Assembly: GCF_900112105.1 (NCBI RefSeq)
Contig: NZ_FOKV01000004.1
Coordinates: 1 to 64,000, forward strand
DNA from: Zunongwangia mangrovi
GTDB taxonomy: Bacteria; Bacteroidota; Bacteroidia; Flavobacteriales; Flavobacteriaceae
Reading direction: 5' to 3'
DNA length: 64,000 nt
The first letter of the stretch is position 1; each line of letters opens with the position of its first letter. The translations under genes were made by a program, and so were the position numbers. The notes beneath the pieces were generated by a model. The model saw only the letters and a program-made list of their open reading frames with translations, ran no database searches and had not been told where the DNA came from. Positions 20,424 to 57,857 of the stretch are shown here, piece by piece.

Positions 20424-21566
20424 ATGAAAATCAGTTTACGCAAAAAGAAACTAAGCACTGGAAAGTTTAGTCTCTACCTCGAGTATTATAAAGGTTCTGA
20501 AACCTTGAAAAACGGAAAAACAAAACACTATCGTGATTTTGAATACCTACGGGAATATTTATTTATAGAACCGAAAGATCGCCACGAGAAGAAACAAAAT
20601 GAAGAGACTATAATTAGGGCGGAACAGATCTTATCAATTCGTAGAGCGGAATACGCCCAGGGAAAGTATGGCATTAAAGATCGATCTAAAGGAAAAATTA
20701 ATTTTCTGGCCTACTTCGATCATTTAAAAGATGAACGCTACGAAAGCCACTCGAATTATCACAACTGGCACGCAGCCCAAAAACAATTAGAAGCTTACTG
20801 TAATCATAGTTCCATCACCTTTGATGAAGTAGATGAATCCTTTGTTTATGGCTTTAAAAAATATCTCGATGATCAGGCCAGAACAGTCTATGGAGATAAA
20901 CTTTCTCAAAATACAAAATACACCTATTTCAATAAACTAAAAGCTGCACTTCGCGCGGCCTTCAACGAAGGCTATACGAATAGAAATTATGCAACCAGTG
21001 TTAAAGGCTATGCTCAAACCGAGTCGAAAAGAGAATATCTAACTCATCAGGAATTGCAAAAACTGATGAATAAAGAATGTCGGTTTAAAGTTTTAAAAAG
21101 TGCCTTTCTATTTAGTTGCCTAACAGGCTTGAGATGGAGTGATGTTCATAAATTAACCTGGTCAGAAATTCGTGATGAAGGGCAAAACACCAAAATCGTT
21201 TTCCATCAGCAAAAAACTAAAGATCTGGAATACCAATATATCTCTAATCAGGCTAGAACTATTATGGGAGATCGAAAGGATAGCGAAGATCCTGTGTTTA
21301 AAGGGTTGAAATATGGGGTTGTCTATAATAAAGCTTTGTTGGACTGGTGTAAAAAGGCAGGCATAAAAAAACATATTACCTTTCATAGTGCTCGTCATAC
21401 CCATGCTGTTCTTTTACTGGAATATGGTGCTGATATCTATACGGTATCTAAAGTACTAGGACATAAGGAAATTAAAACTACGCAGATCTATGCGAAAATG
21501 GTAGATAAAAAGAAAAAAGAGGCGGCAAGGCTTATTCCTGAAATTCAAACGACCAATGTTATATGA
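20424..21566 (+). CDS. int: Tyrosine recombinase / integrase of the island
   Basis: A 380-residue site-specific integrase of the Bacteroidota phage-integrase type. It has an N-terminal arm-binding domain (about 1-95), a SAM-like core-binding domain (about 100-205) and a C-terminal catalytic domain. Catalytic residues are visible: Arg in LTGLRWSDV near 238, HxxR in HSARHTHA near 320-323, His in LGHKEIKTT near 345 and nucleophile Tyr in TQIYAKM near 356. It is 1 kb inside attL, which fits it being the enzyme that integrates at mnmE. The next gene overlaps its end by 11 bp. Confidence 0.95.
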   Translation: MKISLRKKKLSTGKFSLYLEYYKGSETLKNGKTKHYRDFEYLREYLFIEPKDRHEKKQNEETIIRAEQILSIRRAEYAQGKYGIKDRSKGKINFLAYFDHLKDERYESHSNYHNWHAAQKQLEAYCNHSSITFDEVDESFVYGFKKYLDDQARTVYGDKLSQNTKYTYFNKLKAALRAAFNEGYTNRNYATSVKGYAQTESKREYLTHQELQKLMNKECRFKVLKSAFLFSCLTGLRWSDVHKLTWSEIRDEGQNTKIVFHQQKTKDLEYQYISNQARTIMGDRKDSEDPVFKGLKYGVVYNKALLDWCKKAGIKKHITFHSARHTHAVLLLEYGADIYTVSKVLGHKEIKTTQIYAKMVDKKKKEAARLIPEIQTTNVI

Positions 21567-24107: not shown

Positions 24108-24158
24108 ACTGCGTATGCGAAAAACCTGAATTTTCTAAAAACGCATTAAAATAAAAAA

Positions 24159-24186: not shown

Positions 24187-24236
24187 TGATATAATGCGAT
24201 TAAAATTATTAATCACTTTAAACACACTTCAAAAAT

Positions 24237-27686: not shown

Positions 27687-27697
27687 TCGAAAACATT

Positions 27698-29233: not shown

Positions 29234-29253
29234 ACACTAAATAAATAATAATT

Positions 29254-29739
29254 ATGAAAAATCAACGTAGAAGCGCAATCAGAAAAATAGCTGCATCAGT
29301 TTTTGGATTAACAGGATTAGCCGCTTTTGGTAAAAATTTAAATACCAAAAATATATCTCAGGAGACATCTTCAAACGAAATTATTAGAAATACTGCAGAA
29401 GATTCTGATCAGGAGGTGCCACTATTTTCAAGTTCAGTAGTTCATAATGGTCTTGTGTATATCGCAGGTAAAGGAGCTCATTTTGAAGGAGATATTAAAG
29501 ATCATACTAAACATGTTTTAAATGAGCTTAAGAAAGAGCTAGAAAAAGCAGGTTCTTCAATGGAAAAAGTACTTAAGGTTAATGTATATCTAAACGACCT
29601 TAATGACTATAAAGCTATGAATGAGGTATATCTTGGAAAATTTGGTAAAAACCCTCCTGTGCGTACTACGGTAGCTGTATACGGTGGTGTACCAGGAAGT
29701 TCCCTGGTAGAAATCGATTGTATCGCAGCCTTAAAATAA
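29254..29739 (+). CDS. RidA-family (imine/enamine deaminase-like) protein, exported
   Basis: A 161-residue YjgF/YER057c/RidA protein. Family residues are visible: the FSSSVVHNGLVYIAGKGA strand, the key Arg in PPVRTTVAVYG near 141 and Glu in LVEIDCIAA near 152. RidA hydrolyses reactive imines left by PLP enzymes. Unlike cytosolic RidA it has an N-terminal extension QRRSAIRKIAASVFGLTGLA, a twin-arginine-like signal. It lies directly before a PLP enzyme, which suggests it clears that enzyme's product. Confidence 0.88.
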   Translation: MKNQRRSAIRKIAASVFGLTGLAAFGKNLNTKNISQETSSNEIIRNTAEDSDQEVPLFSSSVVHNGLVYIAGKGAHFEGDIKDHTKHVLNELKKELEKAGSSMEKVLKVNVYLNDLNDYKAMNEVYLGKFGKNPPVRTTVAVYGGVPGSSLVEIDCIAALK

Positions 29740-29743
29740 AAAT

Positions 29744-32235: not shown

Positions 32236-32245
32236 AGAACGCTTT

Positions 32246-33175
32246 ATGAGTATCAGAAAAGCTAAATATTATATTTCTTTCTTTGTTTGCTTTATAGCTT
32301 TACAATTTGCAAATGCCCAGCAAATTGCAAAAGAAGAACTTATATATCTTACCAATGCATGGGAAGGTGAACGTTTTGAAAATGGTCGTCCTAAAATCCC
32401 TTCAAATCTTATGAAAAGGGCTAAAGACATTTCTATAGATGTTGCCTGGCAAATTTTGGATAACGAGGGCTATCCTTCACAATTCGAAGGAGAATGGAAA
32501 ACTATAAATAATAACCCGGTGGTAGGAAGAGCGGTAACGGCTATGTTCTTACCAAGTCGTCCAGATGTAGAAGAACAAATTAAAACCAGGGGACATAAAG
32601 AAGGTTTTAAAGGAAATACCAACTCCTGGCCTATTGCCAAGTTAACCGAAGGTGATATTTATGTTGCCGATGCTTTTGGAAAGACCTTACAAGGAACTTT
32701 AATAGGTGATAATCTAGGTAATGCCATTTACTCTAAAACAAAAAACGGAGTTGTATTTTATGGGTCTTCAAGAGATTTAGAAGGTTTGTCGAAAATCGAA
32801 GGTTTTAATGCCTTTGTTAAAAACTGGAATCCTACTTACTTAAAAAATGTAATGCTTGCAGGACTAAATACACCAATAAAAATTGGGCAGGCTATTGTGA
32901 TGCCTGGCGATTTGGTTTTAGCTAAAGAAGAAGGTGTAATTTTTATTCCCGCACATTTAGTTGAAAAAGTGGTTTTAACAGCCGAATTTATTGATTTAAG
33001 GGATGAATTTGGTCACGAAATGTTATCCAAAGGAATTTATGAATCTGGTGAAATCGATAACGAATGGACACCAGCTATTAAAGATCGATTCCTTAAATGG
33101 ATTAAAAATAATGATGATCGAGTTCCCATGACACAGGAAGAATTGAATCAGTTTTTAAACAAACGTACCTGGTAA
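32246..33175 (+). CDS. RraA-family protein (aldolase/decarboxylase-like), exported
   Basis: A 309-residue protein with a Sec signal (IRKAKYYISFFVCFIALQFANA) and the RraA/HMG-aldolase fold: GDNLGNAIYSKTKNGVVFYGSSRDLEG holds the Arg-Asp pair that binds the keto acid and metal, and IVMPGDLVLAKEEGVIFIP resembles the family's PGDxxxxDxDGVxxxP, with Asp replaced by Lys-Glu. Family members cleave 4-hydroxy-2-oxo acids. Length (309) is larger than RraA (about 160-230), with an extra N-terminal part. Confidence 0.85.
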   Translation: MSIRKAKYYISFFVCFIALQFANAQQIAKEELIYLTNAWEGERFENGRPKIPSNLMKRAKDISIDVAWQILDNEGYPSQFEGEWKTINNNPVVGRAVTAMFLPSRPDVEEQIKTRGHKEGFKGNTNSWPIAKLTEGDIYVADAFGKTLQGTLIGDNLGNAIYSKTKNGVVFYGSSRDLEGLSKIEGFNAFVKNWNPTYLKNVMLAGLNTPIKIGQAIVMPGDLVLAKEEGVIFIPAHLVEKVVLTAEFIDLRDEFGHEMLSKGIYESGEIDNEWTPAIKDRFLKWIKNNDDRVPMTQEELNQFLNKRTW

Positions 33176-33298
33176 AATACCTCAGCACAAAATGATGAGG
33201 CATTGATGAGAATCTAATATTGATTTTGAAACATCCCGATAACGATCAGGATCAGAGTAAATAATATAGATTATTCAGTAAACTAATTATCTGCAATT

Positions 33299-34537
33299 AT
33301 GAAAAGAAGAGATATTTTAAAAAGTATTCCATTGGTTACCCTGGCAGGAAGCATTCCGGGTTCTATTTATAAATTCAGTGCAATCAATAAAAGCGGAAAG
33401 GCAAAAAAAAGCATTGATTATTTTAACGAATTAGGGGTCGATAAAGTAATAAATGCATCGGCAACAATGACCTGGCTTTCAGGATCACTTATGCTACCAG
33501 AAGTATTGGAAGCTATCAATTCTACCGCTCATGATTTTGCAGATATGTACCAGTTACAGGATAAAGCAGGAATTAAGATTGCTGAAATGCTCAACTGTGA
33601 AGCTGCAATGGTAACCTCGGGTGCTGCCTGCGCACTTGTTTTGGGTACTGCTGCAGCCATCACAGGTTTCGATGAAGAAAAGCGAAAACTTATTCCTAAT
33701 CTTCCCGGCGAACGTCCAGAAGTGATTATGCAAACTAATCATCGTTATGTATTCGATCAGGCCATTACCACAACAGGTGCTAAAATTATCGAAGTTAATA
33801 ACGAAGCAGAAATGCGTAAGGCCTTCAATAAAAATACGGTGATGGCGCTTTTTTTTAATGCTGCAGAATCCTGGTACGGAGTAAAAAATATTATTTCTCA
33901 CGAAAAATTCGTAGCCATTTGTAAAAAGCATAACGTGCCTTCATTTATTGATGCAGCTGCAGATGTTCCACCGGTTGAGAACCTTTTTAAATATCAAAAA
34001 ATGGGCTTTGATCTGGTTACTTTTTCAGGAGGAAAAATGATTAGAGGGCCACAAAGTGCTGGTTTACTGTTTGGAAAAGAATCCCTAATTGAAGCTGCAA
34101 AATTAAATTACAGTCCGAATGAAGCTCCAATTGGCCGCCCAATGAAGGTGAATAAAGAAGAGATTTTTGGGATGTATGCCGCTCTAAAAATCTATCTGGA
34201 AAAGGACCATGATAAAGAATGGCAGGATTGGATGGATCGTACTTCTGCAATTAGTGCTATTCTGAATAACCTTGAAGGAGTAAAAACTGAAGTAATAATT
34301 CCTGAAGGCCCTGCAAATGTATTCCCAACTCTAGATGTTACCTGGGATACCAATAAAATTAAAATTACCGGAAATCAATTATATGAAAAATTGAGAGCCG
34401 GCACTCCAAGTATTGTAACGAGCAAGACCACTAGAAATAACAAAGAGTTTATAAATGTTGGTGTTGTTTTACTAAAACCAGAACAGGTTTCTATAGTTGC
34501 AAATCAAATTAAAAAAGAAATACAGTCTAAAATTTAA
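33299..34537 (+). CDS. Second SelA/DgaE-like PLP enzyme, Tat-type leader
   Basis: A 412-residue paralogue of the PLP enzyme encoded 3.5 kb upstream. The PLP lysine is K246 in FSGGKMIRGPQSAG and the Asp is D218 in IDAAADVPPVENLFKYQKMGF. The N-terminal KRRDILKSIPLVTLAGS is twin-arginine-like. The two copies share the same fold but differ in the active-site loop (GLRG versus MIRG, TWLSG versus TFMTG), so their substrates or reaction steps may differ. A 123-bp gap precedes it. Confidence 0.88.
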   Translation: MKRRDILKSIPLVTLAGSIPGSIYKFSAINKSGKAKKSIDYFNELGVDKVINASATMTWLSGSLMLPEVLEAINSTAHDFADMYQLQDKAGIKIAEMLNCEAAMVTSGAACALVLGTAAAITGFDEEKRKLIPNLPGERPEVIMQTNHRYVFDQAITTTGAKIIEVNNEAEMRKAFNKNTVMALFFNAAESWYGVKNIISHEKFVAICKKHNVPSFIDAAADVPPVENLFKYQKMGFDLVTFSGGKMIRGPQSAGLLFGKESLIEAAKLNYSPNEAPIGRPMKVNKEEIFGMYAALKIYLEKDHDKEWQDWMDRTSAISAILNNLEGVKTEVIIPEGPANVFPTLDVTWDTNKIKITGNQLYEKLRAGTPSIVTSKTTRNNKEFINVGVVLLKPEQVSIVANQIKKEIQSKI

Positions 34538-34540
34538 AAA

Positions 34541-34924
34541 ATGAAATTACCCACAAATTCATACAAAATCGTCTTTATACTCCTTATGTTTTTAGCCTTT
34601 GCAGGGCAAAGCAAGGCAGCTTCAGGAGATCCAATAATTCCTGAAGTTCATATTGGAGACGAATTAATTATAAATGCACCTGAAAATTTAAACTTTCAGG
34701 GAATTCAACTTCCGAAGAGAAATTTTTTATTGAAACAAGGGCAAATTCCTAATTATAAAAATCTTTACGGTAAGAAAGTAAAAGTTATTGAAATAGTAGA
34801 AAAAGAAGGATATACTGAAATTACCTTATCTGCTGCAGATGGGAAAAACTTCTTTAAACATCACAAAACATTGAAAGCTAATTTGCAATCGTCGTTCACC
34901 GCCAATGAACTTCGGCAATTTTAA
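34541..34924 (+). CDS. Secreted small protein of unknown function
   Basis: A 127-residue protein with a Sec signal peptide (YKIVFILLMFLAFAGQSKA, about 7-26). The mature part is a small, mostly beta-looking domain (YGKKVKVIEIVEKEGYTEIT). I recognise no family. It is four bases after the second PLP gene and ends the operon before a strong terminator. Periplasmic by inference. Confidence 0.7.
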   Translation: MKLPTNSYKIVFILLMFLAFAGQSKAASGDPIIPEVHIGDELIINAPENLNFQGIQLPKRNFLLKQGQIPNYKNLYGKKVKVIEIVEKEGYTEITLSAADGKNFFKHHKTLKANLQSSFTANELRQF

Positions 34925-34942
34925 GTGAGTTTTAGTTAGTGC

Positions 34943-34979
34943 AAAAGGCTCTTTAATGTAATATTAAGGAGCCTTTTTT
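34943..34979 (+). terminator. Terminator of the SusCD catabolic operon
   Basis: AAAAGGCTCTTTAAT pairs with ATTAAGGAGCCTTTT (one G-T wobble), followed by a run of T. Confidence 0.88.
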
Positions 34980-36793: not shown

Positions 36794-37657
36794 ATGAAAA
36801 AAAATAATGAATTGTGGAGTAGCGCCCGAAATACAGATATTATTCAATTATTGAAGTCTTTAGGGCACTACCCCACCAAAACAAAGGAAAAAGAAGCTTG
36901 GTTTCTGAGTCCCCTGCGGTCAGAAACGCAAGCCTCTTTTATCGTATCTAAAACAAAAAACCTTTGGTACGACTTCGGTCTTAGTAAAGGTGGGAATAGT
37001 ATCGACCTTATCATGAATTTGAAATCCTGCAATTTCCAGGAGGCGTTGAACTTTCTAAAAAATCCACAGTTTAGCTTTTCTTTTAACCCGCCTGCTCAAA
37101 TTTCACATGAACCAAAAATTAAATTACTGAAAACATCACATTTTATCTCAAACGCCTTACAGGATTATATCATGCAACGTGGAATTCCCATACGATTAGC
37201 TTCACGCTTTCTGGAGGAAGTGACCTATAAGGTTCGCAGTGGAATCTATTTTAGTCTGGGACTTAAAAATCATAAAAATGGTTGGGAACTTCGAAATGCT
37301 TATTTCAAAACGGTGATCCCTCCGAAATCCTATACCCACATTTGCTGGAATCATACTAGTCTTTGTATCACCGAAGGTATGTTTGATTTTTTGTCTCTGG
37401 GAGTTTTAGAGAAAGAGTCTTTTGAAAAAATGGACCATGTGATACTAAATTCTCTGGCTTGTGTTCCGCAACTAATGGGATTGCTTCCCTCCTATTCCAA
37501 GATATATCTCTACCTGGATAATGACCCTGCGGGAGATCGTATGACTTCGTATTTACTAGAACATTTTGCTCAGGCCATCGACCTGAGATATCGCTTTTAT
37601 CCACATAAAGATCTTAACGAAAAACTTTGCCATGTTCGACGAGAAAATACCCTTTGA
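36794..37657 (+). CDS. CHC2-like/Toprim DNA primase
   Basis: A 287-residue primase-like protein. The N-terminus has a degenerate CHC2 zinc-finger region (SPLRSETQASF, WYDFGLSKGGNSIDL) without the canonical cysteine set. The C-terminal Toprim domain has CITEGMFDFLSLG (Toprim Glu) near 195 and YLYLDNDPAGDRM (DxDxxG) near 240. With VapE it should prime element replication. The downstream MobC frame overlaps its end by 26 bp. Confidence 0.85.
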   Translation: MKKNNELWSSARNTDIIQLLKSLGHYPTKTKEKEAWFLSPLRSETQASFIVSKTKNLWYDFGLSKGGNSIDLIMNLKSCNFQEALNFLKNPQFSFSFNPPAQISHEPKIKLLKTSHFISNALQDYIMQRGIPIRLASRFLEEVTYKVRSGIYFSLGLKNHKNGWELRNAYFKTVIPPKSYTHICWNHTSLCITEGMFDFLSLGVLEKESFEKMDHVILNSLACVPQLMGLLPSYSKIYLYLDNDPAGDRMTSYLLEHFAQAIDLRYRFYPHKDLNEKLCHVRRENTL

Positions 37658-38153
37658 AAATGAAAAAAAATCCTCCTATTCCTTAAGCTTTGAAAAGCTA
37701 AAAAAAAGGGAAGGCAAAACGAGGATTTCCAATGATGGGGACACGGGTTCCCATCAAACGGAAAATTCTAATATAGATCCTAATTCAAGATGTGTGTCTG
37801 TGGACACAATCTTGATTGCTCCCCATGGTCGCAATGAAAAAAAAGAGATGTTTAAGGGGAAGACCTCCTTAATCAAATTCAGGTGTACGCTGTACCAGAA
37901 AAAACTACTGAACATCAAGGCGAAACGATCGGGATTAAGTCTGAGTGAATTTTGTCGAAAATCTGCGATGGATCTGCCCATCAATGAGCGGATGAGCGAT
38001 GATCATATTGCCATCTACAAAGATCTGGTGAAATTTCATAACAACTTTAAGTCCATCGGGAATATTTTCCGAAAACGGGATCCCAGGTTATCTACTGAAG
38101 TTTATAAGCTGGCCGAGGCGATGAAGCAACATCTTAAAAAACTGGATCTATGA
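37632..38153 (+). CDS. Plasmid mobilization relaxosome protein MobC-like
   Basis: A 173-residue protein whose conserved part is the C-terminal 100 residues: IKFRCTLYQKKLLNIKAKRSGLSLSEFCRKSAM, then a helical EVYKLAEAMKQHLKKL end. This is the MobC/bMobC (ribbon-helix-helix-like) class that melts oriT for the relaxase. The first 70 residues look unstructured; a start at residue 72 (MFKGKTS) is possible. It overlaps the relaxase ORF by 4 bp (ATGA). Confidence 0.78.
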   Translation: MFDEKIPFENEKKSSYSLSFEKLKKREGKTRISNDGDTGSHQTENSNIDPNSRCVSVDTILIAPHGRNEKKEMFKGKTSLIKFRCTLYQKKLLNIKAKRSGLSLSEFCRKSAMDLPINERMSDDHIAIYKDLVKFHNNFKSIGNIFRKRDPRLSTEVYKLAEAMKQHLKKLDL

Positions 38154-39019
38154 TTGGTAAAGGAAAATCCATTAGTCATACCCAAGCTTCCATGAAGTAT
38201 GGATGGAACCAGGAGAAGGAGGCAGAGATTGTCTACTCTCAAAATATCGTGGGAGATTCTCCGCAGGAAATTAGCCGGGAGTTTGAACAGATCCAAAAGC
38301 TGAATGAGCATTGTGAGCGAAATACGCTTTCATTCGTCCTGAGTCCTACCATTGAAGATGGCCGAACACTGGATCAGCGAAAACTTGGAGAACTGACCAA
38401 AGACTTTATGCGGGAAATGAAACTGGGCGAGCGACAGGCGATTGCCTTTGTACATCAGGATAAAGAGCATAAGCATGTACATCTTTATGTGAACCGAATT
38501 GATTTTGATGGTCGTGCCTATAAGGATAATTTTATTGGTAAACGTAGTCAGCATGCTGCCGAGCGGGTAGCTCACGAACATCAACTGACCACCGTTCGTG
38601 AGGTACAGCTCATACGGGAGATTAATCTTACCGATATCCGTTTGGAAATCAAACGTCGGCATGAGCTGACCATGAAACAATTTAAACCGGAAACTTATAA
38701 AGAATACATGCGCGGAATGGAAACCAATGGTGTAAAAGCCATTCCCTTTATCAATAAGCAACAAAAATTGCAGGGCTTTCGATTTGAATTTGATGGACAT
38801 AGCCTTAAAGGCAGCTCGGTTCATCGCTCCATGAGTATGTCCAATATCGGAAAGCAAATGGCCAGAGAACATGGTATCGAGAAATTTAAAGAACTCAACA
38901 AAGCGATTAACCTTGCGAAAAGCCCGGAACCGGTGCAAATCAGCTTGAAACTATTAAAAGAAATCACACAAAAAGTTATTAAAAAGTCCATATCCAAAGG
39001 CATGGATATCGGATATTAA
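38150..39019 (+). CDS. Relaxase/mobilization nuclease (MobB-type)
   Basis: A 289-residue MOBP-like relaxase. The metal-binding HUH motif HKHVHLYVNRID near residue 107-118 follows a QAIAFVHQDKEH strand. An N-terminal catalytic residue must nick oriT; the early Tyr/His are in SMKYGWNQEKE and ENIV-like segments, and I cannot assign it with certainty. It begins in ATGA overlap with MobC. Presence of relaxase without tra genes makes the island mobilizable, not self-transmissible. Confidence 0.87.
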   Translation: MIGKGKSISHTQASMKYGWNQEKEAEIVYSQNIVGDSPQEISREFEQIQKLNEHCERNTLSFVLSPTIEDGRTLDQRKLGELTKDFMREMKLGERQAIAFVHQDKEHKHVHLYVNRIDFDGRAYKDNFIGKRSQHAAERVAHEHQLTTVREVQLIREINLTDIRLEIKRRHELTMKQFKPETYKEYMRGMETNGVKAIPFINKQQKLQGFRFEFDGHSLKGSSVHRSMSMSNIGKQMAREHGIEKFKELNKAINLAKSPEPVQISLKLLKEITQKVIKKSISKGMDIGY

Positions 39020-39031
39020 ACCTCTGTAATT

Positions 39032-39334
39032 ATGGCAAAAATTGATGAACTATCGGAATTGTTATGCGCTGAACTGGCAAGCTTCGAGCAGCATATGAAA
39101 CGACTGGAAGAAATTCACTCGCAGGGGATTCACCTGGATACCGAAGACCTGATACGACGACTTTCAAGCCTGGAAGACACACTGGATTTTGAAAAGAACG
39201 AATATGAACGGATTTCTACGGAATTATCCAACACGATTAAAGAGGCAAAGATCTACCCGAAATGGGCGCTTATTGTGTTTTTTGTGTCTTTGAGTTTGAA
39301 TATTATTGGTATAGCCTTTTTGGTATTTAGCTAA
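39032..39334 (+). CDS. Coiled-coil protein with C-terminal membrane anchor (mob operon)
   Basis: A 100-residue protein with a long helical, coiled-coil-like N-terminal region (about 1-72) and a single C-terminal transmembrane helix (ALIVFFVSLSLNIIGIAFLV, about 80-98). Third gene of the Mob run, 12 bp after the relaxase. Small tail-anchored proteins like this accompany relaxases in Bacteroidota; function unknown. Confidence 0.72.
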   Translation: MAKIDELSELLCAELASFEQHMKRLEEIHSQGIHLDTEDLIRRLSSLEDTLDFEKNEYERISTELSNTIKEAKIYPKWALIVFFVSLSLNIIGIAFLVFS

Positions 39335-40231: not shown

Positions 40232-40463
40232 TGATAGATTCAGAATAAGCTTTTCATCATTAATTTGCGAATAATACCAACAGAGAGTTGTAAATTTTAA
40301 TAGTGATTGGATCATCTCTAGGATTTGAAACTTCTATGAGATAAAGCTATCCCCCCTATTTTGTCCGTACCTTAAAAGGTATTGATTTGCAAAACATATA
40401 AAGTTTATTTTCTCCAGTCTCATCATTGGAGATTTGTTTTTTGGGTTAGCTGCGATTCCCTGT

Positions 40464-40536
40464 ATATGCACTGAATGCACTTAGTGAGTGTCTTCATTTC
40501 ACCTCACCTTACGGGTGTACAGACACCCTCAAAAAT
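40464..40536 (-). ncRNA. Predicted single guide RNA for the dCas12f-like protein
   Basis: Minus-strand RNA just after the dcas12f stop. The stem GGGTGTCTGTACACCC (40513-40528) is a hairpin. Then GTGAGGTGAAATGAAG...CTCAC closes a second stem (GTGAG with CTCAC at about 40484-40488), which mirrors the Cas12f repeat end GAATGAAG..(N)TGCAAC. The next 20 nt, TAAGTGCATTCAGTGCATAT (40464-40483), would be the guide. There is no second repeat, so no array. The 5' end is unknown and may extend into the TCAA repeat or the gene's 3' end. The base before the guide is C, not G. Confidence 0.62.
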
Positions 40537-40560
40537 TCAATCAATCAATCAATCAATCAA
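40537..40560. repeat. (TCAA)6 microsatellite at the 3' end of the dcas12f-like gene
   Basis: Six exact TCAA copies straddle the stop codon (40553-40555) of the Cas12f-like gene and precede the predicted guide-RNA scaffold. Its phase is such that copy-number change would not alter the coding sequence, but it would change the distance between gene and RNA. Confidence 0.8.
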
Positions 40561-41650
40561 TAATAATCTCAATACCCGCCATCTCGGCTTTGTATTTTAT
40601 TTTTTCTATCAATCCATAATAACTCCAATTTCGGAGCACAAATTCTTCTTCTTTAGCAACCGCCATTTTCTTTTCCTGATTTATAAGCACAAGTGTTCCC
40701 GCTTGTTGTTTGATACAAAAATTAATTAATTGCCTACTGTATACGTGCAGACGGTTATCGATATAATTTCTTTCTCGCTCCCGAAATCTATCAACTGCCT
40801 TCGTTTTTCGTTTGTATCCTTTTCCTGATTTTGCGTAACTAATTCCTTGTTGTGTTCTTTTTCGGGCAGCCTGGATTGCTAATCTTCTATAGAGAAATTC
40901 TTCCTTACTGCCTATTTGTAGTTTTGACATAGCTGTTTTTACTGTTACAGGAAATTCTATAGATAAAGCAGCTTCTGCAATTCTTTCAGGCTTCAAAAGG
41001 TTTTCTGTCTTTTCGATCTCGAACACCCCCAGCATAAATATCTTACCTTTTTTCAACTGAATTTGCGAAGTACAAAGTTTAGTTTTGCCATTCATTACTT
41101 TTTTTAAAAGACTACGTTTATCGCTAAAATCTCGTCCTAAATATGTGACCATAGGAATTGAGAAAAGCCGAAAACTAAATATATTTTTTTCTTCATTATA
41201 CGATAAACCTCGCATACCTTCATAACTAAAAGGAAATGGCATATTACGTTTAAAATTCATTAGTGAACGCTCACCGCTCCAATATTCCGATTGATATCTG
41301 GTATATTCCTTTATTGTAGATTGATTAATGCTACTCAAGATATTAGTAGGGATTTCTCCTTTAAACCGATCTGATATCAAACGATAAGTGGTATTCATTC
41401 TAGAACGGTTTAATATTCCCAATTCATCCTTTTGTTCATCAACTAATTTGTATTTAACCTCTTCAGAGAGGTATAGAAATTCTTTTATCATTCCTTGTAC
41501 AAACAAATGGGAAGCTATAAGATTTGCAGCCCGGTAACACCGATTTTGCCATCTATATAAAGTTTTAAAAGCTTCACTACGTTCCTCCTTCGATGGCAGA
41601 TCGATGAGCAATTGAATTTTTCGCGTAAGTGTCATTGTTGATGTATTCAT
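40553..41650 (-). CDS. Nuclease-dead Cas12f/TnpB-like RNA-guided protein (dCas12f)
   Basis: A 365-residue protein. Its C-terminal third carries a TnpB/Cas12 pattern: RKRTQQG (about 268), KAVDRFRERERNYIDNRLH (about 285-303), a GTLVLINQE strand (about 317) and NWSYYGLIEKIKYKAEMAG (about 342-360). The RuvC-I Asp position reads SIEFPV (about 229), the RuvC-II Glu position is LVLINQ with no Glu, and the protein stops at IEIIID, before the zinc finger and RuvC-III Asp. So it should bind RNA and DNA without cutting. ATG start two bases after the sigma gene's stop: an operon. Family call is by pattern, not by search. Confidence 0.82.
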   Translation of the reverse strand: MNTSTMTLTRKIQLLIDLPSKEERSEAFKTLYRWQNRCYRAANLIASHLFVQGMIKEFLYLSEEVKYKLVDEQKDELGILNRSRMNTTYRLISDRFKGEIPTNILSSINQSTIKEYTRYQSEYWSGERSLMNFKRNMPFPFSYEGMRGLSYNEEKNIFSFRLFSIPMVTYLGRDFSDKRSLLKKVMNGKTKLCTSQIQLKKGKIFMLGVFEIEKTENLLKPERIAEAALSIEFPVTVKTAMSKLQIGSKEEFLYRRLAIQAARKRTQQGISYAKSGKGYKRKTKAVDRFRERERNYIDNRLHVYSRQLINFCIKQQAGTLVLINQEKKMAVAKEEEFVLRNWSYYGLIEKIKYKAEMAGIEIIID

Positions 41651-41652
41651 AG

Positions 41653-42438
41653 CTAAGCAGATTGTAAATGTTCTTTACTTTTCTGATTCATCGCTTTGTA
41701 AGCAATCATAAACTGACGATGCACCTCTTTATGTGAGCGCTGAAGCTTTTCAGCAATTTTTTGAAAAGAAAGGTGCATTTCACATCGTAATTGGAATATT
41801 TCAGCCTGTTCTTTAGTTAATTCCAATTTTAAATTTTCAAAGTTTGAATGCGTGTGGTCTACCTGCTCTAATGTATGTCCACTTTGAACAATCATTTTAA
41901 TACGCTCTATGGCCAAATGAACCTGATTACTTGTCTCTCTAACGCTTACCCCCATAAGTTTGGAAATGATCGCGTATTTGAAGTTGTTTTTTAAACAAAG
42001 TTCAATCAATTGTCTTTGCTTACTTTCTAAAAACGGAAGTACACATAGTATCTGATCAAGGCATTCCTGTTTAACATTCTGATCCAACAGATGCACATCT
42101 TCAGCCTCAGGATTGAATCCATGCATATACTCCTGATAGTTATCGAAAAGTTCTAAACGACTGATAGATCTCTGAAACTTATTTCTAGGCCTGCAATAAT
42201 AGTAGATACATTCTGTCTTCATTACATAAAACAGAAAAGAATGAATATGTTGAGGGTCATTTATCTTATCTCTTTTCTGCCATAGTTTTAAGAAGGTATC
42301 CTGAAGAATGTTTTCAATAATAAAATCATCTTTTATTACCTTTTTCCCTACCCAAAAAAGTTTATTATGATACTTGGTATAGATAAACTCAATAGCATCG
42401 GGGTGTCCTTGTTTTAATAATTTAAAATTACGTTCCAT
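41653..42438 (-). CDS. ECF-like sigma factor paired with the dCas12f-like protein
   Basis: From the ATG at 42438 (MERNFKLLKQG; the TTG at 42444 is a weaker start) the protein has a region 2 like FecI sigmas (AIEFIYTKYHNKLFWVGKK, NILQDTFLKLWQKRDKIND, YYCRPRNKFQRS), then region 4 (LESKQRQLIELCLKNNFKY, KLMGVSVRETSNQVHLAIER). A second HTH follows (LTKEQAEIFQLRC, QKIAEKLQRSHKEVHRQ), an unusual duplicate region 4. No FecR or SusCD is adjacent. The dcas12f gene begins two bases after its stop. Confidence 0.85.
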   Translation of the reverse strand: MERNFKLLKQGHPDAIEFIYTKYHNKLFWVGKKVIKDDFIIENILQDTFLKLWQKRDKINDPQHIHSFLFYVMKTECIYYYCRPRNKFQRSISRLELFDNYQEYMHGFNPEAEDVHLLDQNVKQECLDQILCVLPFLESKQRQLIELCLKNNFKYAIISKLMGVSVRETSNQVHLAIERIKMIVQSGHTLEQVDHTHSNFENLKLELTKEQAEIFQLRCEMHLSFQKIAEKLQRSHKEVHRQFMIAYKAMNQKSKEHLQSA

Positions 42439-42869
42439 TGGCAACAGTTTATGATGTTGGATCGGATCTTAGAATAAGTACTGTACTAATAAATAATATA
42501 AGACTTTCGGTATGGTCTATAGCTTTCATAATTTTGCTATGGTTTTTTGATTGTCTCTATTTAGTTCATCAAGCCATAAGCCTTCCCCAACAGCTGTCAA
42601 ACTCGAGGGAAGGCTTTCTAGCTTCTAGCCTAGCCTAAATGGCTAATTCATTAAACTGTGGTTTGTTACTTTATTGTAGGGTTGGTATTATTAATGATTT
42701 AATCAACCCTCTTCCTCTGAAAAATAATATTGCTATAGCATTTCCTAATGCAATAGATTCCATTTAAATGCTTATATAAGTACTTTGTGATAACCAAATA
42801 TAGTAAAAATAATTAGCATTCGTTCGGTCGAACGAGATTAATTTATAAGTATGCGATTCCTTTGCTAAT
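42439..42869. promoter_or_regulatory. Divergent intergenic region between the sigma and the XRE-like gene
   Basis: No gene seen. It contains a hairpin AAGCCTTCCC..GGGAAGGCTT (42578-42616) and a perfect inverted repeat TCGTTCG-GT-CGAACGA (42820-42835), 35 bases before the XRE-like ATG and a likely operator. The remaining bases hold the sigma promoter, but no consensus box is clear. Confidence 0.45.
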
Positions 42870-43130
42870 ATGGCAAGAGATATTAATAGGGCTATTTGCT
42901 TATTTATAACTGAAGAATGGATAGATCCCTTCTTAGCTAATGGCGGCACACAGGTTGGTTTTGCAGACAATCACAACATCTTGGAAAGTACCGTTAGAAA
43001 AATAAAAAATAACCCTAATTACCGAATTCCTGTTGAAACACTTTTCAAGATTTGTCACGAAAGAGAAATAAGCATGTCTAATTTTTTTAAAAAGTTTGCA
43101 GAGAAATTCCCTGAATTTGAAAATCGATAA
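42870..43130 (+). CDS. Small HTH (XRE-like) DNA-binding protein
   Basis: An 86-residue protein. The segment from HNILESTVRKIKN through YRIPVETLFKICHEREIS looks like a cI/Cro helix-turn-helix with a recognition helix and the stabilising L-x-x-I-C helix. No other domain. Divergent from the sigma-dcas12f operon across a 431-bp region with a palindrome, so it may regulate that operon or itself. Could be a fragment of a larger immunity or regulatory family, but has its own ATG and stop. Confidence 0.7.
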   Translation: MARDINRAICLFITEEWIDPFLANGGTQVGFADNHNILESTVRKIKNNPNYRIPVETLFKICHEREISMSNFFKKFAEKFPEFENR

Positions 43131-43251: not shown

Positions 43252-43965
43252 TTAATTTAGTATTTTATAACATGAATAACATACCGGTTTAACCATCGTG
43301 GAAGTATTTTCCTTACCGCATGAATGGCACACTTTTTCTTCAAAATCTAAATTCTCATAAAAAGACCACGATTTATAGCATTTTTTACAGTATGGGCTAT
43401 CCATATTTAGTGGAATAATTTCGCTGCATCTAATGCAAGTTCCATCTTTTTTATTTCCACTAGTATTTGACTTGAATTTAGTTTTATTTTTATTGCTTAA
43501 GAGACTAAATTTCTTTTTTGGTGTCTTTTTATTCAGAACTACAACTTCAGATGATCGAATAATCGATTCCGTTTCCTCAACGGCATTTTCATATAAATCC
43601 TGATCTCCTTTCGCTTCAATATAAACCCCCATTTCCCTATTATTCTTTTCTGAGTATTCATACATATTCATCGAAGTTATTACCATCGAAGATTCATTGA
43701 AGTAACACTTTGCATGTAAATTTTCAGAAAAATAAAGTTCTAAATTTGTTAGTTCTTTAAGTAAATTAGTTTCTTTAGAATTTAATTTACTCTTGCCGTA
43801 TATAATTACTATTTGAACATTATGATTTTGTGCGTCCTGAAGCCTTTCATAAAAGGACTTTGAAAACTGCAAATATGGTGAAACCAATACGACTTTTTTA
43901 TTAGCATCTTTGATAATTTTTTCAATATACGATGATATCCAAGAGGTTGTTAAAAATTCTGCCAT
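43252..43965 (-). CDS. Phospholipase D-like domain protein with zinc ribbons
   Basis: A 237-residue protein. An N-terminal PLD-like half has one HxK motif (NLHAKCYFNESSMVITSMN, about 82-100), of the single-domain type that works as a dimer; nearby residues (KVVLVSPYLQFSKSFYERL) match the PLD fold. The C-terminal part (about 170-237) carries two CxxC pairs of zinc ribbons (CIRCSE..YCKKCY and CHSCGKENT..CYSCY). It is the last gene of the McrBC run. Likely a nuclease-like effector; unclear. Confidence 0.78.
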   Translation of the reverse strand: MAEFLTTSWISSYIEKIIKDANKKVVLVSPYLQFSKSFYERLQDAQNHNVQIVIIYGKSKLNSKETNLLKELTNLELYFSENLHAKCYFNESSMVITSMNMYEYSEKNNREMGVYIEAKGDQDLYENAVEETESIIRSSEVVVLNKKTPKKKFSLLSNKNKTKFKSNTSGNKKDGTCIRCSEIIPLNMDSPYCKKCYKSWSFYENLDFEEKVCHSCGKENTSTMVKPVCYSCYKILN

Positions 43966-43981
43966 TTAAATTCTTTGTATT

Positions 43982-45223
43982 TTAACTATTTTTAATCCAA
44001 TTATCTATTTCTTGGGCAATATCAAATTGCCATTTTTTTATATTTCGATTGACCTGAATTGAAATCACTCCACATTCTTTATTACTCAGTTTTTCTCCAT
44101 ATTTTTCGTAGTAAAAACCGGAGCTTAAAAATGAAGAATTTCCAGGATAAATTAAGGCAACTTTTTGCGCTGAATAATAATCGTGGTAAACGTATAGTTG
44201 TCTGAGATCATTAGGTACAGGATTAGATTTGGAAATATTCTTCCATTTCGTATCACAAACTATGCAATCCTGCATACCTTTATTAATTACTATATCTGGA
44301 CGCATATTTGAATTATAACCGTCATTTGGCTTCCAGAATTTCTTAGTATTCTGCGCATGGATAGTATACTTTTCCGGAAGATGCCTTTTTAAACTGATAT
44401 AAATAAATTCTTCCCAAAGCGAATTCATATCAAATAATAAGGCAATCATATTTTCTTGGCCGTGCTTTATATTAGGCGCATACTGGAGAATTATAAATCG
44501 GGCTATTTCTAAAGCTGTTTTATAAGGCGCCGATTTTCTATTTAGCTTGATGCGAGTAAAACTTCTGCTGTCAATATTGATTTTACTAACTTCAGGAAAA
44601 TTAAGCTGAATAGACTTACATCTTGAATAAACATAAGTTCCTTTAGAAAACTTCTCTATTACCGAAAGAGCGTAGGCTAAAACCTGATGAATAAGATGAT
44701 CTTTTTCATACACCTGATGCGTAGTATAAAATCTTTCTTTATGAACTAAGTTTTTACGTAAATGACCGGCAAATTCAAGCTTTCCTTTTAAAGCTTTTAC
44801 ATTTCCTGTCTTTCGATAATATTGCTTAATTAGCCCTTGATGAATTAAAACTTCCACTTCATCTAAAAACCATTGAAAATAAATATCTAAAAGATGTAAA
44901 TTCTGTTTAGAGACATTTGCTTTTCCTACCTTACTTATATTTAGCTTCTTGGTTGTCTTAAGCATATCAATTAACACCCCCTGCCATAATGCTGTATTAT
45001 CTTCTTGGGTATCAACTTTTGGTAAAATTTCTATAGTTAAATTTTCTACCTGAAGAACTCCTACAAAATTTTTAAACTTTACACCATTATATCTAAGATC
45101 GAAATAACAATCATTGTTTAATGCGTTCAGTTTAGATAGTGCTGCTAAATGCTTTCTTTTAAAAACATCTCCACATTGCAATAATTGATATTCAAAAACC
45201 TGTATGTGATTCTTAGCAATCAT
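43982..45223 (-). CDS. mcrC: McrC-like component of a McrBC restriction system
   Basis: A 413-residue protein with an N-terminal DNA/partner domain and a C-terminal PD-(D/E)XK-type nuclease: NMRPDIVINKGMQDCIVCDTKWKN (about 305-328; Asp, Asp and Lys at the usual spacing). McrC supplies the endonuclease to the McrB motor. It starts one base after the McrB stop. The partner McrB below has the GTPase NRGNV hallmark, so the pair should be active. Confidence 0.88.
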   Translation of the reverse strand: MIAKNHIQVFEYQLLQCGDVFKRKHLAALSKLNALNNDCYFDLRYNGVKFKNFVGVLQVENLTIEILPKVDTQEDNTALWQGVLIDMLKTTKKLNISKVGKANVSKQNLHLLDIYFQWFLDEVEVLIHQGLIKQYYRKTGNVKALKGKLEFAGHLRKNLVHKERFYTTHQVYEKDHLIHQVLAYALSVIEKFSKGTYVYSRCKSIQLNFPEVSKINIDSRSFTRIKLNRKSAPYKTALEIARFIILQYAPNIKHGQENMIALLFDMNSLWEEFIYISLKRHLPEKYTIHAQNTKKFWKPNDGYNSNMRPDIVINKGMQDCIVCDTKWKNISKSNPVPNDLRQLYVYHDYYSAQKVALIYPGNSSFLSSGFYYEKYGEKLSNKECGVISIQVNRNIKKWQFDIAQEIDNWIKNS

Positions 45224-47548
45224 CTATTTATTTAAGAGTGCTTTTATCGCTTCACTTATATCTTCAATAGATTTTAATTCATAACTAACTGTCTCCTCTG
45301 GTACGTCTATAGCATCAAATTCTGCAAATTTGACTTTAGCTTCATTTCGCTTCACAAAGCCCTCACCTAAAATTAATGCAATTTTTTCGTAGTCATTATA
45401 AAAGTATTCTTGAAGTAAAGGGATTATTTTATTTTCAAATACTTCTTTAAGATCTTCTAAAGAGGTGATCTTTAAAAAATAAGAGTGCCCAATGGTATGA
45501 TCTCTATCTAATAAAACCTCAATACGATCATTTATAGTCTTTAAAACTTCAGATAGATTAATGTCAGAAAAATCTAATTCAGCAAGTAAGTCTGGATTTG
45601 GCATGACTTCTTCAAACGCAAAACGCCTTCTTAACGCCGTGTCTAAAGCTTCTACACTACGATCTGCGGTATTCATTGTACCTATAATGTAAACGTTTGA
45701 AGGTACTGTAAACTTTTCTTTTGAATATGGTAAGTCTAATATAATCTCTTCTTCCTTTCCTAAACGTTTATCGGATTCCAGTAAGGTTATTAACTCGCCA
45801 AAAATAGCACTAACGTTACCTCGATTTATTTCATCAATAATAATTACATAATTCTGAAGATTAGGAGATTCCATCCTTTTATGAGATTCTATCTCCGATG
45901 TATTATTCTTATAAGACTTTAACCTTTTTAAAATACCAGGATAATAAATTCCAAGTCCAGTAGAACGTATCTCTCTTTTCCCATAGTAAGCATCTCTTAA
46001 TGTTGAAATACTTAAGGTGTGTCCTGTACCTCCACTTGACTTTTTAAACTGAATTGAAGTTTCCGTAAAACCGATGATTTTATATTCTTTTCCTTCTGTT
46101 CTCAGCGAGAATTCTATATCCTCATTCTCTTCCCATTCTTCTTGTAATCTTTGAAACGCATCATCAAAATTAAGCTCTGAATTATTGCCTTTTATATGTT
46201 CTAACCAATTGGTTTTAGCTTTATCACAAATTCTTCTAAATATCCCCGGTAAGTAATCATAAATTACACGTTTATCTTCGGTAGTTTTAGGTTTGATTCC
46301 TTCTACAAAATCTTCATAGCTATATGACTGATGAAAGGTTGTAAAAACAATTTGACCATTTTCAAATAACCGATCGTATTCTACTACCAAAGATTTTCGC
46401 TGTTCTAAATTATCAGAATCAGATAATTTAAAATTAGGATTAGTAATTTGTACGGCTAACTCTTTTGTTTTATAAGTTTTTCCCGTTCCAGGTGGGCCGT
46501 ATAAGATGGTATTTAAATTTTTCTGAAGCTTTTTTTCTCTGTCAGGATTTAGATTGTAATCAGAAATAATCTTTTTTCCCATAATCTTTTTTCGATAGTC
46601 TAAATCGAAAACCGCTTTTTCAAAATAATCATTATTGCTGTCATAACTAGATTTAACAGAACCAACATATTCTTTTCTAGTAGCCTCCAAAATATCATTC
46701 TGATTGGAAATCACTTTTTCAAAATCTAATAACTTATTGAAAAATGGTTGTGGAGGATTCCCTTTATAGTTTTTACTGTTATCTGAAATTTTTTGTACTG
46801 AAATTGCTGCATATCTACAATCATGACTATTGTATAAATTCCAACAATAACGCTGCCCGACTATAAAATTTAGGCGGTTTTCAGCAATACTATAATTAAT
46901 CTTTAAGTCATTTGGCTTTAGATCTAAGTGATCTACTATTTTATCAAGAAATGAAAAGAAATATATTTTTTCTTCATCTTTAAATTGATTCAAAACTTTT
47001 AAAAAATTAATTTCATTTTTATCCATTTTATTCTCTAATTTTAAAGCAATATAATTTTCTAGTGTAGGCAGAAAATCACGATACAATGCCTTTAGCTGAA
47101 GTTTTAACGCATCCTTGGTTTTATAATAATCTTGAGCTTTAAAACTATAATTGAATTTCTTTTTAGGTACTATTTTCTTATTCTGTAATTTAGATTTATC
47201 AACTTTTCCCCCTACAGACCAGTTAATTAAAGAGTATTCTGAAAAATCTTTCACAAAACTTTGAGCTAACTTAGAGAATCTCTGTTTTTCAATAAAATTT
47301 CCTTCTGGATGGATTTCAAAACAGATATCATTAGCATAGCGACAAAGCTCAAAATGAAGTTCTAAAAGTTGTATTTCGGAGTCTTTTGGAATTATACTTA
47401 TTAATCTATAAGACTCCGTATTTTTGTCTAACCAATTATGATTAATCAATGGGTGATTTTCATCAATCAAATCACTTTTGATATCTTGAAACAAAATGGA
47501 AAGAAACTCTTTATTACTAGAAAAATCATTTATAGTTTTATCTGGCAT
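45224..47548 (-). CDS. mcrB: McrB-like AAA+ GTPase of a McrBC restriction system
   Basis: A 774-residue protein: an N-terminal region (about 1-330, no known DNA-binding motif recognised) followed by an AAA+ domain with Walker A LYGPPGTGKTYKTKELA (about 349), Walker B ENYVIIIDEINRGNVSAIFGE (NRGNV, the GTP-binding signature; about 565) and the arginine finger-type TADRSVEALDTALRRRF. This class cleaves DNA carrying modified cytosine with McrC. The N-terminal domain decides target recognition and is not a match I can name. Confidence 0.9.
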   Translation of the reverse strand: MPDKTINDFSSNKEFLSILFQDIKSDLIDENHPLINHNWLDKNTESYRLISIIPKDSEIQLLELHFELCRYANDICFEIHPEGNFIEKQRFSKLAQSFVKDFSEYSLINWSVGGKVDKSKLQNKKIVPKKKFNYSFKAQDYYKTKDALKLQLKALYRDFLPTLENYIALKLENKMDKNEINFLKVLNQFKDEEKIYFFSFLDKIVDHLDLKPNDLKINYSIAENRLNFIVGQRYCWNLYNSHDCRYAAISVQKISDNSKNYKGNPPQPFFNKLLDFEKVISNQNDILEATRKEYVGSVKSSYDSNNDYFEKAVFDLDYRKKIMGKKIISDYNLNPDREKKLQKNLNTILYGPPGTGKTYKTKELAVQITNPNFKLSDSDNLEQRKSLVVEYDRLFENGQIVFTTFHQSYSYEDFVEGIKPKTTEDKRVIYDYLPGIFRRICDKAKTNWLEHIKGNNSELNFDDAFQRLQEEWEENEDIEFSLRTEGKEYKIIGFTETSIQFKKSSGGTGHTLSISTLRDAYYGKREIRSTGLGIYYPGILKRLKSYKNNTSEIESHKRMESPNLQNYVIIIDEINRGNVSAIFGELITLLESDKRLGKEEEIILDLPYSKEKFTVPSNVYIIGTMNTADRSVEALDTALRRRFAFEEVMPNPDLLAELDFSDINLSEVLKTINDRIEVLLDRDHTIGHSYFLKITSLEDLKEVFENKIIPLLQEYFYNDYEKIALILGEGFVKRNEAKVKFAEFDAIDVPEETVSYELKSIEDISEAIKALLNK

Positions 47549-47737
47549 ACTATAAATTTATTAGATTTGTTTATACTTTATCAACTACTTTTTCAAAGTA
47601 GCTAGAAGGATATCTCTCATATCTTGTATTCGAAAATAGCCTTATTAAAAAAATTATATTTTTTAGAAAATAGAATAGAAAATTCTCTTCGGAATTAGTC
47701 ATTTGAGTAATTACGATTAAATAAAAACTGGCTATAA

Positions 47738-48682
47738 CTATAAATTTTCATTCCAATGACCTTTAATATATTGATCAATTTCATCTCCTCGTAACTCTCT
47801 TGCACTACTTGACCTTCTAATATAGAATGCATTATATGCTTTTTGATTTATAGTTTTTTTCTTTACAAATATTGGTTCCTGATAACGCCCTTCGACATTA
47901 ATTCTACAAATTGTTTTATTATCAATTGTAACTAATGATACATTTAAAACTCTGTGTACGGCATTTCCAAAATAAGTTTCTATTAAATTATCAATGTGAA
48001 GCTTCAGAGCGTCTTGTTTATTATCGCGATTAAATGTAGTAAAGTCTGAATTCTCAAGACCTAGGATTTTTTTGTCATCATCGATACCGATTAATAAATC
48101 TCCTCCATCCGAATTTAGAAATGCTGCTATATTTTTAAAACTTTCAAATTCTAAACTTTTATCTAAAGCATTGTCGTTTATAGAAAATCTTAAAGATGAC
48201 TTAAACTCTATTTTTTTTCCTTCTTCCTGCTTTATAAATTCAAGAATACATTTTTGCTCACCTTTAAGCAATCTGGTTTGGAAATTAGATTGATGAAATT
48301 CGATTTTTTTAAAAAGCAAATCTAAATCTTTCGGCGATTTTGTATAAACATCTTCTGTATCGGCATTAAAAAACATTCTAATCCCATCAATAGCTTTTTC
48401 ATCTCCGGTTAAAATTAATCTAGGAACATCTGGATAATTTTGATTCAGATAATTAATAGCCATACCTATAAAATCTGGTTTTTCTATTTCTTGATTATCT
48501 GAAATCAAGCATTTTACATCCAAAATTACGGCTGTAATTTTTGTAACTATTGAAGGTAACTTTTCCCTCATAGTATCAAAACTTTTAGCCCAGGCCAACT
48601 GATAACCCTTTGACTGAGCTTTTATTTTAAAAGCATCCTTAAAAGTCTTTTCATCATCGATAAGTAGAATTTTTTTACTCAT
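47738..48682 (-). CDS. Response-regulator receiver fused to a Schlafen AlbA_2 domain
   Basis: A 314-residue protein. Residues 1-130 are a receiver domain with acidic D9/D10 (LLIDDEKT), probable phospho-acceptor D55 (VILDVKC), the LILTGDE strand and a YTKSPKDL lysine. Residues about 160-310 are an AlbA_2/Schlafen-like domain (EEGKKIEFKSSLR, AFLNSDGGDLLIGID, VEGRYQEPIFVKK, AFYIRRSSSARELRGDEI). It overlaps the stop-adjacent end of the MTase-kinase gene by 8 bp, so the two are a two-component pair by layout. Also a candidate effector. Confidence 0.88.
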   Translation of the reverse strand: MSKKILLIDDEKTFKDAFKIKAQSKGYQLAWAKSFDTMREKLPSIVTKITAVILDVKCLISDNQEIEKPDFIGMAINYLNQNYPDVPRLILTGDEKAIDGIRMFFNADTEDVYTKSPKDLDLLFKKIEFHQSNFQTRLLKGEQKCILEFIKQEEGKKIEFKSSLRFSINDNALDKSLEFESFKNIAAFLNSDGGDLLIGIDDDKKILGLENSDFTTFNRDNKQDALKLHIDNLIETYFGNAVHRVLNVSLVTIDNKTICRINVEGRYQEPIFVKKKTINQKAYNAFYIRRSSSARELRGDEIDQYIKGHWNENL

Positions 48683-51449: not shown

Positions 51450-51565
51450 TTGCTATATCTTAACTATTTTAATCACCTGTTTAGACCGCAATGCTTATGT
51501 AAAAATCTTAGGCGATTAATAATTCATAAACGCTATTACAATATATCTAATTTCTCCAAACTCAT

Positions 51566-54447: not shown

Positions 54448-54494
54448 CTTGATATATTTCTTCGACAGTTGCTCTTATTTGCAACTGTTATTTT

Positions 54495-57710: not shown

Positions 57711-57753
57711 AAGTGGTTGGTCATCTCGATGTGCAGTAAATATAGGAAAAATG

Positions 57754-57855: not shown

Positions 57856-57857
57856 AA

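What the first reader, a model, noticed from the sequence alone, without database searches (positions are those of the whole stretch)
40464..42438. Sigma factor - nuclease-dead Cas12f - guide RNA: a probable RNA-guided transcription-activation system
One minus-strand unit holds, in order, an ECF-like sigma (41653-42438), a Cas12f/TnpB-like protein with a dead, truncated RuvC domain (40553-41650; two-base gap) and a structured RNA with one guide-like 20-mer. There is no CRISPR array, no transposase, no adaptation gene, no FecR and no SusCD next to it. I know from recent work that Bacteroidota dCas12f proteins linked to sigma-E factors recruit RNA polymerase through an RNA guide, so a programmable activator is the most economical reading. 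The sigma here has two region-4-like segments, which differs from ordinary ECF sigmas. It is carried on a mobile island with a defence cluster.
Basis: partly seen in the sequence, partly recalled or inferred. Interest (0 to 1): 0.97.

Follow-up and report, generated by a model that had tools for sequence, protein, structure and literature searches.

The report
RNA-guided gene activator with found target

Summary
Mostly confirmed. 40553-41650(-) is a full-length homologue of PDB 9n9c 'Nuclease-deactivated Cas12f' (E 1.7e-156); 41653-42438(-) matches 9n9q chain 'RpoE' end to end (E 1.5e-70). This is a new member of the known dCas12f-sigmaE RNA-guided transcription family. All three RuvC acids are gone. 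A covarying guide-RNA scaffold follows at 40461-40530(-).

The real guide lies just outside its interval: GAATCGCAGCTAACCC, 40443-40458(-). It matches one credible site in the genome (14/16, 5'-G flank), upstream of a SusC-SusD-M16 peptidase operon on another contig. In Zunongwangia atlantica guide and site differ slightly but still pair 14/16.

Beyond the known: that operon is preceded by the genome's only copy of a ~190-nt leader RNA, absent from Rfam, with two covarying, mutually exclusive folds, one a terminator. In most related genomes the guide equals the 5' arm of this terminator, before SusC genes and before the sigmaE operon itself. This suggests attenuator bypass plus autoregulation. 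Binding, transcription and start sites are untested.

The parts
41653..42438 (-). sigmaE (RpoE-like ECF sigma, 261 aa) with a second region-4-like segment
   Evidence: phmmer E 1.5e-70 to PDB 9n9q_C 'RpoE', residues 4-261; Pfam Sigma70_r2, r4_2, r4
40553..41650 (-). nuclease-dead Cas12f (365 aa)
   Evidence: phmmer E 1.7e-156 to PDB 9n9c 'Nuclease-deactivated Cas12f', residues 1-364; RuvC-I Asp replaced by Ala in A-E-A-A-L-S (motif starts at residue 225), RuvC-II Glu segment deleted, chain ends before RuvC-III
   Evidence: conserved in 28 gRNAs; 99% of cells paired, covariation above all 500 shuffles; covariance model hit, 76.5 bits; own fold z = -2.5
40443..40458 (-). guide GAATCGCAGCTAACCC (40459-40460 = GG linker)
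   Evidence: variable segment after the conserved ..ATACA end in 28 gRNAs; 14/16 match at G000:C6:1873-1890 upstream of SusC
42578..42616 (-). class II leader hairpin (AAGCCTTCCC...GGGGAAGGCTT) in the 5' region of the sigmaE operon, shared with the 5' region of the target SusC
   Evidence: same element at L034:1671, L060:8078, L094
42795..42802 (-). TATATTTG, matches the TAnnTTTG -7 box of flavobacterial housekeeping promoters; candidate promoter of the operon
   Evidence: sequence; consensus from PMC9723704; not tested
42870..43130 (+). small divergent HTH protein; a similar HTH ORF stands divergently at most leaders of this kind
   Evidence: relatives; Pfam only weak (HTH_26 E 0.04)
37632..39019 (+). 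NikA-like and MobA/VirD2 relaxase genes of the island; a 93% identical module sits beside the genome's second sigmaE-dCas12f locus
   Evidence: Pfam NikA-like, Relaxase; blastn 37513-39329 vs L060:11570-13386, 92.8%
20424..21566 (+). tyrosine recombinase of the island, beside mnmE (17934-19376)
   Evidence: Pfam Phage_integrase

Best explanation
This is a dCas12f-sigmaE RNA-guided transcription system. SigmaE, dCas12f and the gRNA are made from one operon. dCas12f loads the gRNA, whose guide is GAATCGCAGCTAACCC, and opens DNA at a matching site flanked by a 5' G, without cutting. The sigma factor then brings RNA polymerase, which starts downstream of the R-loop without a normal promoter. In this genome the site (contig C6:1873-1890) lies just downstream of an attenuator-type leader and about 250 nt before a SusC-SusD-M16 peptidase operon, so the new start would produce the operon mRNA without passing the leader's terminator. 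Shown here: homology, loss of nuclease residues, gRNA covariation, guide-target match and its near-conservation in a sister species, leader covariation. Inferred from the known family: RNA loading, DNA binding, polymerase recruitment, start position.
For: Full-length homology of both proteins to the solved complex components. Loss of all RuvC acids. Same sigma-dCas12f-gRNA order in the Flavobacteriaceae relatives examined; homologues in 19 of 397 genomes. gRNA covariation. The own genome has only three gRNAs, one of them here. Guide vs the 557-bp SusC upstream region: 14/16, reached by 0 of 1000 shuffled guides; Z. atlantica guide 14/16, p 0.001. Of the sites with up to 2 mismatches only this one is intergenic and before a TonB receptor gene. 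The target operon is SusC-SusD-M16 by Pfam. The only leader of its kind in the genome lies directly before this site. G100 guides hit the homologous SusC upstream region at another place, 15 contiguous bases.
Against: The guide has two mismatches to its site (guide positions 9 and 11) in the own genome. G100 keeps the site without having this guide, so the site is conserved for some other reason too. Guides of the second system of this genome have no convincing target. No expression data. The primary papers are not in the library, so the transcription-start rule rests on memory.
Confidence: 0.85

Rival explanations
1. RNA-guided repressor (TldR-like): dCas12f with its guide blocks transcription through the SusC leader region, and the sigma factor is only a neighbour.
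For: Nuclease-dead TnpB repressors exist (TldR, PMC13418256, and Nature 2024 doi 10.1038/s41586-024-07598-4 cited). The class I sites lie inside a transcribed leader downstream of a TAnnTTTG-like promoter, where an R-loop would be a roadblock.
Against: In the Flavobacteriaceae loci examined the sigma gene lies directly upstream of dCas12f, usually with a 1-3 nt gap; the sigma is homologous end to end to the RpoE solved together with dCas12f. In the window's own case the site lies downstream of the leader terminator, a poor place for a roadblock of the leader but a good place for a new start.
Confidence: 0.08
2. Known activator, but the SusC site is a chance or ancestral match; the real target is another locus or a mobile-element or phage sequence.
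For: Two mismatches in 16; the site is also present in G100, which lacks this guide; the second system's guides have no target.
Against: 0 of 1000 shuffled guides reach 14/16 in that region; guide and site both vary slightly in Z. atlantica yet still pair 14/16; other Zunongwangia guides hit the same SusC region at another place; guides of most other dCas12f genomes hit homologous SusC or sigmaE leaders.
Confidence: 0.15
3. Decayed remnant: an inactive sigma-dCas12f pair carried along on a mobile island.
For: Island context; the second copy's guides have no target.
Against: Intact ORFs with 94% identity of the 2.9-kb module to Z. atlantica, intact covarying gRNA with a guide that still fits its site.
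Confidence: 0.05

Closest known systems
dCas12f-sigmaE RNA-guided transcription systems of Bacteroidota (PDB 9n9c, 9n9m, 9n9o, 9n9q)
   Same: Both proteins full length, same architecture, nuclease dead, sigma gene linked, gRNA beside it, 5'-G flanked target, SusC-type target
   Different: New species, new guide; target unlinked on another contig; class II leader instead of the class I leader before its own operon; carried beside a relaxase module
TldR (TnpB-derived RNA-guided repressors)
   Same: Nuclease-dead TnpB/Cas12f-superfamily protein with a guide RNA regulating a host surface-protein gene
   Different: Repressors without a sigma partner; linked to flagellin or ABC transporter genes; different clade
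Active Cas12f (PDB 9nzo, 8hr5) and TnpB
   Same: Homologous C-terminal region, E 2.9e-41 to 9nzo
   Different: All RuvC acids and the C-terminal RuvC-III part are missing here; no CRISPR array
ECF sigma-FecR-SusCD signalling units (as at 22277-29233 of this window)
   Same: ECF sigma that serves SusCD genes
   Different: No FecR anti-sigma; promoter choice by guide RNA instead of receptor signalling

Membership tests
dCas12f-sigmaE RNA-guided transcription system | Cas12f/TnpB homologue of the sigma-linked clade | tested here: met
   E 1.7e-156 over residues 1-364 to 9n9c; next best active Cas12f only 2.9e-41
dCas12f-sigmaE RNA-guided transcription system | RuvC catalytic residues lost | tested here: met
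   RuvC-I D to A, RuvC-II E deleted, RuvC-III absent
dCas12f-sigmaE RNA-guided transcription system | adjacent sigmaE gene homologous to the complexed RpoE | tested here: met
   E 1.5e-70, residues 4-261, to 9n9q_C
dCas12f-sigmaE RNA-guided transcription system | adjacent gRNA with conserved scaffold | tested here: met
   alignment A2 and pair counts
dCas12f-sigmaE RNA-guided transcription system | guide match with 5'-G flank upstream of a gene | tested here: met
   ttccgG|GAATCGCAACAAACCC, 14/16, about 250 nt before SusC
dCas12f-sigmaE RNA-guided transcription system | gRNA binding, sigma and polymerase recruitment, promoter-free start | not testable with these tools
   needs RIP, ChIP and RNA-seq
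TldR repressor | no sigma partner; closest to TnpB of IS605 elements | tested here: not met
   sigma partner in the loci examined; closest relative is dCas12f
Type V-F CRISPR-Cas12f nuclease | intact RuvC and CRISPR array | tested here: not met
ECF-FecR-SusCD unit | FecR anti-sigma beside the sigma | tested here: not met
   ORFs around 40-43.2 kb, no FecR

The most novel reading that the evidence does not exclude
dCas12f-sigmaE systems are dedicated to a previously undescribed attenuator RNA: guides copy the 5' arm of its terminator (or a nearby leader site), so RNA-guided initiation starts past that arm and bypasses the terminator, switching on SusC receptor operons and, through the same leader, the sigmaE-dCas12f operon itself (positive feedback).
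Probability: 0.5. Interest if true: 0.82.

Novelty: new member of a known kind. Interest (0 to 1): 0.62.

Why it matters
It gives a native, unlinked target for an RNA-guided activator and shows how to read guides in this family (the variable segment starts after ..ATACA plus two bases). It also ties these systems to a conserved two-state leader RNA in front of SusC receptors and in front of their own operon. That makes the open question of what these activators do in their hosts directly testable in a few culturable flavobacteria.

Tried and rejected
The window SusCD at 24237-29233 as target: rejected, no guide match there, own ECF/FecR. Other own-genome guide hits with 2-3 mismatches: most fall inside genes, and none of the intergenic ones lies before a receptor gene. 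Targets for the two guides of the second system (C25): none convincing. Rfam for the operon and leader regions: nothing near a gathering score. Leader restricted to dCas12f genomes: rejected, the pattern occurs in 39 of 397 genomes, about two thirds of them without a dCas12f hit, so the leader has a wider role. Papers on dCas12f-sigmaE or on this leader: not held. Structure prediction was skipped because the full-length match to a solved homologue is decisive.

Full report
What is there. On the minus strand, sigmaE (41653-42438) is followed after two bases by a 365-aa protein (40553-41650) and, 22 nt after its stop codon, by a structured RNA. phmmer against the PDB gives, for the 365-aa protein, 9n9c/9n9m/9n9o/9n9q 'Nuclease-deactivated Cas12f', E 1.7e-156 over residues 1-364; the best active Cas12f is at 2.9e-41. 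The sigma matches 9n9q chain C 'RpoE' over residues 4-261, E 1.5e-70. The alignment to active Cas12f shows RuvC-I Asp replaced by Ala (in AEAALS, motif at residue 225), the RuvC-II segment with its Glu deleted (LVL.....INQ, motif at 320), and the chain ending before RuvC-III. By my own knowledge these structures belong to the dCas12f-sigmaE RNA-guided transcription work of 2025; the papers are not in the library.

Relatives. Within Flavobacteriaceae 19 of 397 genomes have a homologue at E 1e-20 or better. Relatives also occur in Sphingobacterium and Olivibacter. In nearly all Flavobacteriaceae loci examined the order sigma-dCas12f-gRNA is kept, usually with a gap of a few bases. The two region-4-like segments of the sigma are therefore likely a family trait, since the solved RpoE aligns over the same length. 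The window genome has a second, 65% identical system on contig C25. The nearest relative, 97%, is in Zunongwangia atlantica (L003; G301 has a contig of the same length, 28,884 bases, and is probably the same assembly).

The guide was misplaced. Aligning 28 gRNAs shows a common scaffold GAGGGTGCTTGTACACCCGTAAGGTGAGG-N-CACTCACTAAATGCnnnnaGCATATACA with three hairpins; 99.0% of cells pair and the covariation score exceeds all 500 shuffles. What varies is what follows ..ATACA plus two bases. In the window this is GAATCGCAGCTAACCC (40443-40458). Comparison of guides with their sites (gRNA ..AC|GCGTGGG.., genome ..GG|GCGTGGG..) fixes the boundary and gives a 5'-G flank.

The target. In the own genome the guide region has one credible site, G000:C6:1873-1890, GG|GAATCGCAACAAACCC, intergenic and about 250 nt before an ORF. 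That ORF and the next two are SusC-type TonB receptor (1001 aa), SusD and an M16 peptidase. The match of 14/16 in the 557-bp upstream region is reached by 0 of 1000 shuffled guides. In Z. atlantica guide and site each differ slightly (GAGTCGCAGCTAACCC against GAATCGCAGCAAACCC) but still pair 14/16, p 0.001. In a third Zunongwangia (G100) the site is kept although the guide is missing, but that species' own guides hit another place in the same upstream region, 15 contiguous bases, p < 0.001. Its flank is A, not G, an unexplained departure. Upstream of SusC the three species are mostly 77-94% identical, whereas the SusC coding parts fall to about 45-70%; the SusC proteins are 51-58% identical to the window genome's.

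A leader RNA ties it together. Upstream of the site lies a ~190-nt element that also precedes most sigmaE-dCas12f operons and many SusC genes of Flavobacteriaceae. In 40 copies it shows an antiterminator-like fold (93.6% of cells paired, 136 double-change cells against 43 in shuffles, score 0.236 against 0.098) and a mutually exclusive terminator fold followed by a T run in most copies (97.9%, 6 pairs with double changes, 0 of 500). Both folds are far more stable than shuffles for the G322 copy (z -5.3 and -4.9). It starts at a TATATTTG-like box in most copies; TAnnTTTG is the sigma-A -7 box in flavobacteria (PMC9723704). Rfam has no such family. All 14 dCas12f genomes scanned carry it, and the window genome has exactly one copy, before the target operon. 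By sequence pattern it also occurs in genomes without dCas12f (39 of 397 genomes in all, about 26 of them without a dCas12f hit), so it is a wider regulatory element, usually with a small divergent HTH gene about 170-200 nt upstream.

How guides relate to the leader. In other genera the commonest guide, GCGTGGGCTCTCTTATTT, is the 5' arm of the terminator. It matches leaders before SusC-like genes and before the system's own sigmaE. Matches with p < 0.02 by shuffling were found at 18 of the 26 leader copies that could be scored, in 10 of 14 genomes; Z. atlantica, whose copy could not be scored there, adds an eleventh. From memory, RNA-guided starts lie some tens of nt (about 46) downstream of the flank. 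Measured on the G322 copy this falls at the beginning of the terminator's 3' arm, so the transcript could not form the terminator. In the window genome the site lies downstream of the terminator, with the same consequence. This bypass model and the feedback loop are inferences.

Context. The window's island lies between mnmE (to 19376) and proline dehydrogenase (62621 on; both names from sequence reading). It has a tyrosine recombinase, VapE-like and primase-like genes, NikA/MobA mobilization genes and Type I restriction-modification genes. G100 has about 23 kb of other DNA between the same two genes, and in Z. atlantica the block 22310-34943 stands inverted beside proline dehydrogenase, so this is an insertion hotspot. 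The 2.9-kb dCas12f module is 94% identical in Z. atlantica but in another context, and homology ends within the first codons of sigmaE, where Z. atlantica has a class I leader and the window a different (class II) hairpin. The second dCas12f of this genome lies beside a 93% identical relaxase module.

Verdict. New member of a known kind, with a supported native target and a new lead: a conserved attenuator RNA that these systems seem to be aimed at.

Noticed in passing
L034:1203-1399 (G000:C6), L171, L102 and others; alignment A1: ~190-nt leader RNA of Flavobacteriaceae with two mutually exclusive covarying folds, not in Rfam, before SusC, ECF-FecR and sigmaE-dCas12f genes, usually with a divergent small HTH gene; also in genomes without dCas12f. 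Candidate new RNA switch or attenuator.
   Followed up: partly
G000:C25:499044-500369 (L060): Second sigmaE-dCas12f system of the same genome with two gRNAs; guides GCGTGTGCATTTTTTATT and GGCGGAGCTACTTATTTT have no convincing target in the genome.
   Followed up: partly
L059:1560-5130, L165, L166: The 560-bp regulatory region before SusC is mostly 77-94% conserved in three Zunongwangia species while the SusC behind it diverges sharply, as if receptor genes were exchanged behind a fixed expression site.
   Followed up: partly
window 42427-42450: Between the window and Z. atlantica the 94% identity ends within the first codons of sigmaE; the leaders are of different classes, so the control region has been swapped.
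   Followed up: no
window 40536-40557: GATT tetranucleotide repeat between the dCas12f stop codon and the gRNA: about six units here, about three in Z. atlantica (L003); slippage would change the spacing.
   Followed up: no
L062:5869-6298, L008:9911-10488, L004, L005, L007: Several systems carry two to four gRNAs in a row with different guides; in Sphingobacterium-type loci they lie upstream of dCas12f.
   Followed up: partly
L005: Contig of a MAG called Neobacillus (a Bacillota genus) with a Sphingobacterium-type dCas12f; probably mis-binned.
   Followed up: no
window 43252-59107: Defence-type cluster: McrBC-type genes, PLD-like protein, a methyltransferase fused to an ATPase-like domain, Type I R-M genes, PDC-M15A/B homologues.
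   Followed up: partly
window 22277-34924: ECF sigma, FecR, SusC, SusD followed by RidA-like, aminotransferase-like, amidohydrolase-like and RraA-like genes (names from sequence reading): a nutrient-uptake cluster, 91% identical in Z. atlantica but inverted there.
   Followed up: no
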